Source of the DNA: Clostridiales bacterium
Lineage (GTDB): Bacteria > Bacillota > Clostridia > Christensenellales > JAISNN01
NCBI GenBank assembly: GCA_031276195.1
Contig: JAISNN010000032.1
Span: 1-64,000, forward strand
Reading direction: 5' to 3'
Length of the DNA stretch: 64,000 nucleotides
The stretch's first letter is position 1. Each line of letters opens with the position of its first letter. The position numbers and the translations under genes were made by a program. Below the pieces are notes generated by a model. The model did not search any database. It saw only the letters and a list, made by a program, of their open reading frames with translations, and had not been told where the DNA came from. Below, in pieces: positions 31,790-51,880 of this stretch.

Positions 31790-32045
31790 AGAAATATATA
31801 AAAAACAAGCGAAAAACGTATAAAAAACAAGCGAAAAACGTATAAAAAACAAGCGAAAAACGTATAAAAAACAAGCGAAAAACGTATAAAAAACAAGCGA
31901 AAAACGTATAAAAAAACGGCGGAAAACGTATAAAAAAACGGCGGAAAAGGCATAAAAAACAAGCGAAAAACGTGTAAAAAAACGGCGGAAAAGACATAAA
32001 AACAAGCGTAAAAAAATAAAAAAAACAAGCAAATCACAAAAAAAC
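31790..32045. repeat. 22-bp tandem repeat array
   Basis: aaaaaacaagcgaaaaacgtat and variants repeated about 9-11 times. Confidence 0.92.
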
Positions 32046-34967: not shown

Positions 34968-35019
34968 CGATAGAATACCCGTTATACCGTTAAACGGCGC
35001 GGTAAAGTGCAAAAATAAA

Positions 35020-35280
35020 AGAAAAAAGGCTTTTCGGCGTTTTGAATTATAAAAAAAACGCGGTGAAAAGCGCGGTAAGAAACGGATACTAAAAGAAAAA
35101 AAGTGCTTTCGGCGTTTTGAATTCAAAAAGAGCCGCGGTGAAAAACGCGGTAAAGTGCAAAAATAAAAGAAAAAAGGCTTTTCGGCGTTTTGAATTATAA
35201 AAAAAACGCGGTGAAAAGCGCGGTAAGAAACGAATACTAAAAGGAAAAAGTTTTTTTCGGCGTTTTGAATTCCGGAAAAC
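35020..35280. repeat. Tandem repeat between response regulator and kinase genes
   Basis: aaaaaggcttttcggcgttttgaattataaaaaaaacgcggtgaaaagcgcggtaagaaac, about 4 imperfect copies. Confidence 0.85.
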
Positions 35281-36303: not shown

Positions 36304-36609
36304 ACGGCGTTTGCGCGGCCGTAAATTTTTTTTTCGTACCGTTACGGAAAAAATAGAGACGAATTTTAAGAATCGGCGTTAATTCCGTTTTCCGTGAGCG
36401 CGGACGTAAAGAGGCGTACGCGCTTTCGGTCGTTTTTTTGAACGGAAAACGGATATAGACGCGCTTGAAATTGCGTTTTTCTTGAATAAAATCAGACGTA
36501 TATATGCTTATTTTTTATGGTTTTGTTGAATAAAATTAGATATCGATATGAAAAATTATGTTTTTTCGAGAGTTTTTTGCAAGAAAAATAAAAATTTTTC
36601 ATAAAAGGC

Positions 36610-36638
36610 TTGACAAATTCATTTTTGTTGCATATAAT
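36610..36638 (+). promoter_or_regulatory. Sigma-70 promoter TTGACA-17-TATAAT upstream of abi locus
   Basis: TTGACA 36610-36615, TATAAT 36633-36638. Confidence 0.85.
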
Positions 36639-36644
36639 AGTATC

Positions 36645-36700
36645 AACAGACTCCGACACGCCTCTCAACGATGCGTACCACGTCGGGGCATTTTTTTTTA
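36645..36700 (+). ncRNA. Candidate small hairpin RNA preceding abi gene (terminator-ended)
   Basis: Outer stem CTCCGAC (36651-36657)/GTCGGGG (36682-36688), inner ACGC/GCGT, followed by T9 (36691-36699); ends 15 nt before abi ATG. Confidence 0.6.
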
Positions 36701-36714
36701 TAAGGATTTGACAT

Positions 36715-37596
36715 ATGCCGGAACTAAAAGCGCAGCAGCCGCCGATAAACGTAAAAAAACAAATCGCAAATCTACGCGAAAAGGGTTTGACTATTCACGA
36801 TGAAAAGTATGCGGAAGCGTTTTTAGAAAACGTATCGTATTTTCGGCTAATAAAAGCATACAGTTTAGAACTAAAAGTAAGTAAAAACGGAAGATATGAA
36901 GACGGAGTTTGTTTTGACGACATCGTAAACCTTTATTTGTTCAACTGTAGTTTTAGACAAAAACTGTTTGTGCAAATCGAAAGAATCGAAGTCGCATTGC
37001 GATGCCGCGTGTCAAATTATTTTTGTGAAAAATACGGAGTTTTGGGTTATGAAGACGCAAACAATTTCAACGATTTGTCTTTCCACGCAAAGTTTCTTTC
37101 TGAAATTGAAAATGAAATAAAAAGAAATAAAAAAACGCCGTTTGTAAATAATTTCCAAACACACTACGAGGGCGGAAAACTGCCGTTATACGCTTGTATC
37201 GAATTGTTTACTTTCGGGACACTGTCAAAATTTTATAAGAATATGACGCCGATTGATAAAAAAAGCGTCGCGTCGTTATACGGCGTAAAATATTCGTATT
37301 TGGAAAGTTGGATTGAAAGTATGTCGTACGTGAGAAACGTGTGCGCTCATTACGGCAGGCTGTATAATGTGAAGTTGACAAAAATGCCGCATATTTATAA
37401 GCAATATTCCGACCGCGGAATTAATAATTCAGGAGTTTTTGCGACGCTTTTAACTATGAAATATCTTTTGCCGAACGACGAACAATGGGAATCGTTTGTT
37501 TGCGGAATTGAAGCCTTGAAAAATATGTATCCGAATGTAAAATTGGAATCAATGGGTTTTCCGGTCGATTGGAGGGATGTATTATCTCTTTGTTGA
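36715..37596 (+). CDS. Abi_2 (AbiD/AbiF-like) HEPN-family abortive infection protein
   Basis: KKQIANLREKGLTIHDEKYAEAFLENVSYFRLIKAY; C-terminal RNVCAHYGRLYN (Rx4H HEPN motif). Confidence 0.9.
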   Translation: MPELKAQQPPINVKKQIANLREKGLTIHDEKYAEAFLENVSYFRLIKAYSLELKVSKNGRYEDGVCFDDIVNLYLFNCSFRQKLFVQIERIEVALRCRVSNYFCEKYGVLGYEDANNFNDLSFHAKFLSEIENEIKRNKKTPFVNNFQTHYEGGKLPLYACIELFTFGTLSKFYKNMTPIDKKSVASLYGVKYSYLESWIESMSYVRNVCAHYGRLYNVKLTKMPHIYKQYSDRGINNSGVFATLLTMKYLLPNDEQWESFVCGIEALKNMYPNVKLESMGFPVDWRDVLSLC

Positions 37597-37808
37597 AAGA
37601 AAACCGGGCGGGGCGGTTGTGTTTCCCGCATTTTTATGAAAGAGTTTTTTAATTAATTTCAACTTTACACTTCTTTACTCAAACGAAACGGAATTCGGCT
37701 TGACTAAAACGCGGAGGGCGTTATATAATTTTATAGGCGGTGATCGGCATAAAAGAACCGCGTTTTTAAAATCAAGAATCGGTATACGTAATACATAACG
37801 CATAAATG

Positions 37809-37839
37809 AAAGACGGTTAAAAATTTTAACCGTCTTTTT
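37809..37839 (+). terminator. Strong intrinsic terminator between abi and P-type ATPase genes
   Basis: aaagacggttaaaaattttaaccgtcttttt. Confidence 0.9.
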
Positions 37840-37872
37840 CGTTTGATATTTTTTGTTTAAAGGAGAGATACT

Positions 37873-51851: not shown

Positions 51852-51880
51852 TTGACAACGTTCGGTAGATCGTTTATAAT
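51852..51880 (+). promoter_or_regulatory. Sigma-70 promoter of R-M island
   Basis: TTGACA-17-TATAAT. Confidence 0.8.

What the first reader, a model, noticed from the sequence alone, without database searches (positions are those of the whole stretch)
36603..37600. AbiD/F HEPN toxin gene preceded by its own promoter and a terminator-ended hairpin RNA
Seen directly: TTGACA-17-TATAAT, then about 55 nt folding as CTCCGAC/GTCGGGG with an inner ACGC/GCGT stem, a T9 tract, and 15 nt later the ATG of an Abi_2 protein with RNVCAHYGR (Rx4H HEPN RNase motif). A strong terminator follows the gene, so the unit is self-contained. Established knowledge, from memory: Abi_2/AbiF HEPN proteins have been reported with conserved upstream noncoding RNAs acting as RNA antitoxins and have been linked to Cas13 ancestry. 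This locus has that layout with a very compact RNA. Most of the mRNA would be predicted to stop before abi, so the RNA should be in excess over toxin.
Basis: partly seen in the sequence, partly recalled or inferred. Interest (0 to 1): 0.85.

Follow-up and report, generated by a model that had tools for sequence, protein, structure and literature searches.

The report
AbiF toxin gene with RNA antitoxin
This is a horizontally acquired bacterial gene for a growth-stopping RNA-cutting protein, preceded by a roughly 50-nucleotide RNA hairpin of a known family of RNA antidotes that here also serves as the transcription stop in front of the toxin; the kind of system is already known, but the comparison links it to a 50-nucleotide RNA long ago seen upstream of the Lactococcus phage-resistance gene abiD1.

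Summary
The hairpin at 36652-36688 reaches the curated cut-off of Rfam RF03085 (abiF RNA; 37.1 bits, cut-off 37). It is the only such hit in its genome and the only one over cut-off in 297 genomes of the order. The gene is a PF07751/AbiD-F HEPN protein with both catalytic residues and the fold of PbAbiF (PDB 8VZ6, TM 0.86). Aligned relatives show compensatory changes in 9 of 11 pairs. So this is a new member of a known kind: an AbiF toxin with RNA antitoxin, shown experimentally in C. difficile and a Prevotellaceae bacterium.

What I add: (1) the hairpin doubling as terminator is the rule among relatives (66 of 68), unlike C. difficile with two motifs and a separate terminator. (2) The Lactococcus AbiD1 leader, missed by Rfam, carries the same RNA: the published start falls on the first base of my model hit, and a 50-base terminated transcript was published, so the layout has experimental precedent. 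(3) The gene was acquired horizontally. (4) More distant Abi_2 genes carry another leader hairpin without Rfam match.

The 'strong terminator' after the gene is not supported. Toxicity and rescue at this locus are untested.

The parts
36610..36638 (+). Sigma-A/sigma-70 promoter TTGACA-17-TATAAT driving the RNA and, by read-through, abiF
   Evidence: 12 of 12 consensus positions; exact pattern twice in window, 0.01 expected; a -10 box at this place in 82% of homologous leaders against 7.7% of background
36645..36699 (+). Predicted abiF-type RNA antitoxin, about 50-55 nt, from AACAG to the end of the U-tract
   Evidence: R1 hit 36645-36696 (the window is in the training set); start inferred from the mapped +1 of abiD1, which falls on the homologous first base
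36652..36688 (+). abiF RNA motif RF03085 (hairpin core)
   Evidence: cmscan 37.1 bits, cut-off 37, E 0.0042 for the whole window, model 1-37 of 37
36651..36699 (+). Same hairpin plus CA and T9: predicted intrinsic terminator in front of abiF
   Evidence: T9 at 36691-36699; U-tract directly after the stem in 66 of 68 homologous leaders against 12.7% background
36703..36707 (+). Shine-Dalgarno-like AAGGA, 7 nt before the ATG
   Evidence: sequence
36715..37596 (+). abiF: Abi_2 / AbiD-F family HEPN ribonuclease toxin, 293 aa, R207-N208-x3-H212
   Evidence: PF07751 E 1.6e-50; PADLOC AbiD E 6e-96; 8vz6 by sequence E 1e-32 and by fold TM 0.86
37608..37636 (+). Possible weak terminator after abiF (GCGGG...CCCGC, then T5)
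   Evidence: fold -9.9 kcal/mol, z -0.16; not listed on the + strand by the terminator scan

Best explanation
A self-contained AbiF toxin-antitoxin unit of type III style. One sigma-A promoter makes a roughly 50-nt abiF RNA whose hairpin, followed by T9, stops most transcription. A minority of read-through transcripts encode AbiF, a dimeric HEPN ribonuclease. The RNA, made in excess, binds AbiF and blocks its nuclease; because the same hairpin is the terminator, it also limits toxin mRNA. Phage infection or stress that upsets the RNA:protein balance would free the nuclease and arrest growth (abortive infection). Shown here: sequence anatomy, family membership of RNA and protein, conserved structure, conserved promoter and U-tract, horizontal acquisition. 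Shown in relatives by others: RNA-protein complex, toxicity, neutralisation in cis and trans, short and read-through transcripts. Inferred for this locus: expression, termination efficiency, toxicity, neutralisation and phage defence.
For: RF03085 at cut-off, 26 nt upstream of the ATG, only hit in the genome and only over-cut-off hit in 297 genomes of the order. Abi_2/AbiD protein with catalytic R207/H212 aligned to R210/H215 of PbAbiF; AlphaFold2 model pLDDT 94, matches PbAbiF-ncRNA structure 8vz6 with TM 0.86. Leader RNA conserved upstream of homologues with compensatory changes in 9 of 11 pairs, promoter and U-tract conserved. RCd22 of C. difficile neutralises AbiFCd in cis and in trans and short terminated RNA dominates (PMC12373285). 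AbiD1 of L. lactis, whose leader R1 finds to carry the same RNA, makes a 50-base terminated transcript and rare read-through, and its over-production is bacteriostatic (PMC2661086).
Against: No expression, toxicity or rescue data for this locus. The RF03085 score only just reaches the cut-off. The CA between stem and T9 may weaken termination. In the L. lactis AbiD1 reporter assays removing the terminator did not raise expression, so attenuation may matter little. The gene lies among housekeeping genes, not in a prophage or defence island.
Confidence: 0.87

Rival explanations
1. The hairpin is only a transcriptional attenuator (leaky terminator) of abiF; the RNA has no antitoxin activity in trans.
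For: Hairpin plus T9 directly before the gene; U-tract in 66 of 68 relatives; in C. difficile deletion of RCd22 raises abiF mRNA 17-fold (PMC12373285).
Against: A plain terminator would not keep an 11-nt loop (CUCUNAACNAU), an ACCA bulge and an AACAG start nearly invariant while its stem pairs change. The C. difficile RNA rescues in trans and binds the toxin; PbAbiF was solved with its RNA.
Confidence: 0.07
2. A decayed or inactive immigrant gene with no present function.
For: Patchy presence: no close homologue in five same-genus genomes; foreign composition, GC3 0.395 against 0.59-0.66 for neighbours.
Against: Intact ORF and catalytic residues, consensus promoter, RNA structure intact with family-typical loop and bulge.
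Confidence: 0.04
3. The RNA is a guide or sensor (Cas13-like), directing AbiF to phage RNA rather than only inhibiting it.
For: AbiF is proposed as ancestor of Cas13 (PMC12737573).
Against: The whole RNA is conserved hairpin plus U-tract with no variable spacer-like segment; the variable parts are stem pairs and loop extensions.
Confidence: 0.02

Closest known systems
AbiFCd / RCd22 of Clostridioides difficile phi027 and phiC2 (PMC12373285)
   Same: Abi_2 HEPN toxin (35% identity to the phiC2 protein), RNQCAH-type motif, single sigma-A promoter, RF03085 RNA upstream, terminator before the gene, read-through expression
   Different: RCd22 has two abiF motifs and a separate terminator hairpin, about 100-130 nt; here one motif whose hairpin is itself followed by T9, about 50 nt. 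C. difficile copy is in a prophage lysis module; this one is among housekeeping genes
PbAbiF / AbiFr of a Prevotellaceae bacterium (PDB 8VZ6; Zilberzwige-Tal et al. 2025, known to me through PMC12373285 and PMC12737573)
   Same: Fold (TM 0.86), catalytic R/H pair, RNA hairpin upstream in Bacteroidota homologues also followed by a U-tract
   Different: 27% structural identity; Bacteroidota hairpins have another loop and bulge (CGCUCA) and fall outside R1 or at its edge
AbiD1 of Lactococcus lactis pIL105 (PMC2661086)
   Same: Promoter, about 50-nt RNA starting at the homologous base, hairpin fused to T9, RBS and ATG just after; R1 hit 23.7 bits, E 2.5e-5; 50-base transcript and read-through shown by Northern
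   Different: Protein only 25% identical; stem has one mismatch; RF03085 does not detect it; activated by phage Orf1
Type III toxin-antitoxin systems (ToxIN, AbiQ)
   Same: RNA antitoxin upstream of an RNase toxin, with a terminator between (established knowledge)
   Different: HEPN toxin rather than ToxN fold; a single hairpin rather than repeats of a pseudoknot cut out by the toxin

Membership tests
Rfam RF03085 abiF RNA | Covariance model score at or above the curated cut-off | tested here: met
   37.1 bits, cut-off 37, full length
Rfam RF03085 abiF RNA | Located directly upstream of an abiF/Abi_2 gene | tested here: met
   ends 26 nt before the ATG of a PF07751 gene
Rfam RF03085 abiF RNA | Two-helix hairpin kept by compensatory changes | tested here: met
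   9 of 11 pairs with two-sided changes, score 0.445 against 0.168 +/- 0.019; RNAalifold agrees
AbiD/F (Abi_2, PF07751) HEPN RNase | Abi_2 domain above gathering score | tested here: met
   172.4 bits, cut-off 25.6
AbiD/F (Abi_2, PF07751) HEPN RNase | RxxxxH catalytic motif | tested here: met
   R207-H212, invariant in 26 homologues, aligned to R210/H215 of 8vz6
AbiD/F (Abi_2, PF07751) HEPN RNase | AbiF fold | tested here: met
   8vz6 E 1.9e-14, TM 0.86
Type III (RNA) toxin-antitoxin system | Toxic protein | not testable with these tools
   shown for AbiFCd (PMC12373285) and AbiD1 (PMC2661086), not for this protein
Type III (RNA) toxin-antitoxin system | RNA binds and neutralises the toxin in trans | not testable with these tools
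   shown for RCd22 (PMC12373285)
RCd22-type two-motif arrangement | Two abiF motifs and a separate terminator | tested here: not met
   one motif only, fused to the T-tract; phiC2 has two plus a separate terminator

The most novel reading that the evidence does not exclude
In most of the family the antitoxin hairpin is itself the attenuator of the toxin mRNA, and this includes the classical Lactococcus AbiD1, whose 50-base transcript is an unrecognised abiF-type RNA antitoxin. Phage factors that act on this leader or its gene (such as Orf1) would then trigger abortive infection by upsetting the RNA-toxin balance.
Probability: 0.3. Interest if true: 0.65.

Novelty: new member of a known kind. 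Interest (0 to 1): 0.42.

Why it matters
The locus is a minimal, single-motif AbiF system in which antitoxin and attenuator are one hairpin of about 50 nt, a simple model for the RNA-toxin pairs from which Cas13 is proposed to descend. The comparison shows that Rfam under-detects the family (7 of 20 related loci at cut-off). It also ties the family to AbiD1, for which a phage trigger has long been known but whose short RNA has had no assigned role as antitoxin. That makes the question of what releases an AbiF toxin directly testable in a laboratory Lactococcus system.

Tried and rejected
Chance hairpin or generic terminator: rejected by RF03085 and covariation. Prophage or defence-island context: the genes I could identify around it (two-component system, P-type ATPase, alanyl-tRNA synthetase-like, malic enzyme-like) are not defence or phage genes. 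Strong 3' terminator: not supported. Clean empty site in same-genus genomes: the histidine kinase is kept in all six, but what follows differs and the ATPase is elsewhere or absent, so no insertion boundary could be drawn. Single-protein scans of genome and viral contigs found nothing; the alignment scans did. Sub-threshold RF03085 matches in three other genomes of the order have no recognisable Abi_2 gene beside them and look like chance. RCd22-style tandem motif: not present. Record AF116286 is not held, but its RefSeq copy NC_000906 is. The primary papers on RF03085 (10.1093/nar/gkx699) and PbAbiF are not in the library, so whether they already note the fused terminator or AbiD1 could not be checked.

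Full report
What is there. The coordinates are right. A perfect sigma-A promoter (36610-36638) is followed by an RNA that should begin at AACAG (36645). The hairpin is 36651-36688, T9 is 36691-36699, AAGGA precedes the ATG at 36715, and the ORF runs to 37596. The exact promoter occurs twice in the window against 0.01 expected. The hairpin folds 2.5 to 2.9 standard deviations better than shuffles. The claimed strong terminator after the gene is not supported: -9.9 kcal/mol, z -0.16.

RNA identity. RF03085 matches 36652-36688 end to end at 37.1 bits (cut-off 37). It is the only hit in the 2.27-Mb genome. In 297 genomes of the order it is the only match over cut-off; the three sub-threshold matches elsewhere have no recognisable Abi_2 gene beside them.

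Protein identity. PF07751 E 1.6e-50, PADLOC AbiD E 6e-96, and PbAbiF (8vz6) by sequence at E 1e-32 with R207/H212 on R210/H215. The AlphaFold2 model has mean pLDDT 94 and matches only 8vz6 in the PDB below E 0.001, TM 0.86. R207, N208, C210, A211 and H212 are invariant in 26 homologues.

Homologues. An alignment of four proteins retrieved 80 bacterial and 39 viral loci, with further loci from whole genomes. Nearly all members on the window's side of the family show the same order: -10 box, ACAG, outer stem, GC-rich inner stem, loop, ACCA-like bulge, outer stem, U-tract, start codon. On 25 aligned leaders, 9 of 11 pairs have compensatory changes; the covariation score is 0.445 against 0.168 +/- 0.019 in shuffles and at most 0.123 when partners are slid. 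RNAalifold finds the same helices unaided. On 69 model hits (50 distinct) the result repeats, though that alignment was fitted to the model. Model R1 found 69 matches in 477 kb; the 68 outside the window all lie on the strand of the Abi_2 gene, directly upstream of its start. One caution: A2 and R1 include the window sequence (as L005), so the independent evidence for the window itself is RF03085.

The hairpin is the terminator in most of the family. In 66 of 68 hits at least 5 of 8 bases right after the stem are T, against 12.7% of background stretches. A -10 box of at least 5/6 lies upstream in 82% of 104 leaders against 7.7% of background. C. difficile phiC2 is an exception, with two motifs and a separate terminator. 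So the window is not an unusually compact variant; it has the common form.

AbiD1. The L. lactis AbiD1 work reported one visible transcript of 50 bases from the abiD1 promoter, ending at a terminator just upstream of the gene, with rare read-through (PMC2661086). Over-produced AbiD1 was bacteriostatic. On pIL105 (NC_000906.2, L235) R1 hits 491-544 (23.7 bits, E 2.5e-5; the next best is 7.8 bits in that plasmid piece and 12 bits in the two other pieces searched). Rfam finds no abiF match there. The published 76-nt distance from +1 to AUG puts +1 at base 491, the first base of the hit. The 50-base RNA is therefore, on this evidence, an abiF-type RNA with the window's layout. I did not find this stated in PMC2661086 or in PMC12373285, which mentions only a short terminated transcript; papers outside the library may have noted it. 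A limit: phage Orf1 bound abiD1 transcripts lacking the hairpin, and removing the terminator did not raise the reporter, so the hairpin alone is not the Orf1 target.

Origin. The protein is nested in a clade of mostly Lachnospiraceae and Oscillospiraceae AbiF (39 rows, support 100), sister to a Ruminococcus MAG protein (58% identity). Homologues from its own order lie elsewhere in the tree. GC3 is 0.395 against 0.59-0.66 for four nearby genes. No close homologue was found in five same-genus genomes. Horizontal acquisition is the plain reading.

Mechanism. Established for relatives: RNA-protein complex, HEPN-dependent toxicity, neutralisation in cis and in trans, and excess short RNA (PMC12373285; PMC12737573). 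Inferred here by homology. Where antitoxin and terminator are one hairpin, each termination event yields one antitoxin and each read-through yields one toxin mRNA that still carries the hairpin, so the ratio would be set by terminator strength. That is an inference; the T9 and bulge mutants proposed would test it.

Beyond the finding. The same genome holds two more Abi_2 genes (C61, C40) without RF03085 or an R1 hit. Phage-borne Abi_2 genes of the same outer group (L212-L234) have another leader hairpin (stem, CUCUACGGGG-like loop, stem, then CG) followed by a separate strong terminator. Covariation there is moderate (12 two-sided cells against 6.1 +/- 2.3 in shuffles; RNAalifold). No Rfam family matched the leaders of the loci tested. 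This is a lead, not a result.

Verdict. A well-supported new member of a known system. The interest lies in the family-wide layout and the AbiD1 link, not in the locus as a new kind.

Noticed in passing
L235 (NC_000906.2, pIL105) 491-544: The leader of L. lactis abiD1 carries an abiF-type RNA that Rfam misses; its first base coincides with the published transcription start, and the published 50-base transcript covers it. The RefSeq ORF start (locus 519) lies inside this RNA and looks wrong; the published AUG is at 567.
   Followed up: yes
L212-L234 leaders (about 1090-1160), L123, L131, L132, L160: Phage Abi_2 genes of an outer group have a different conserved leader hairpin (CUCUACGGGG-type loop, CG after the stem) plus a separate terminator whose 3' arm holds the ribosome site. 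No Rfam match; moderate covariation.
   Followed up: partly
L003 (G000:C61) and L004 (G000:C40); L008 in a same-genus genome: Two more Abi_2 genes in the same genome lack the abiF RNA. C40 and L008 share a promoter, a hairpin followed by CGGAAA/CGAAA and a separate terminator, perhaps the same second leader type.
   Followed up: partly
window 37700-37872: The P-type ATPase gene (37873) has its own promoter (TTGACT-18-TATAAT), a leader of about 100 nt and a strong hairpin with T5 (37808-37838, z -5.9) before the start: attenuator or riboswitch-like layout with no Rfam match.
   Followed up: no
window 34998-35272: A 75-bp tandem repeat (3.4 copies) fills the gap between the response regulator and histidine kinase genes.
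   Followed up: no
window 31797-32030: A 22-bp tandem repeat, 10.6 copies, between genes.
   Followed up: no
Rfam RF03085 model: At its cut-off the model recovers 7 of 20 related abiF loci tested; longer loops and the GCAC/GUGU inner stem are missed.
   Followed up: partly
window 51852-51880: A second perfect TTGACA-17-TATAAT promoter, not examined further.
   Followed up: no
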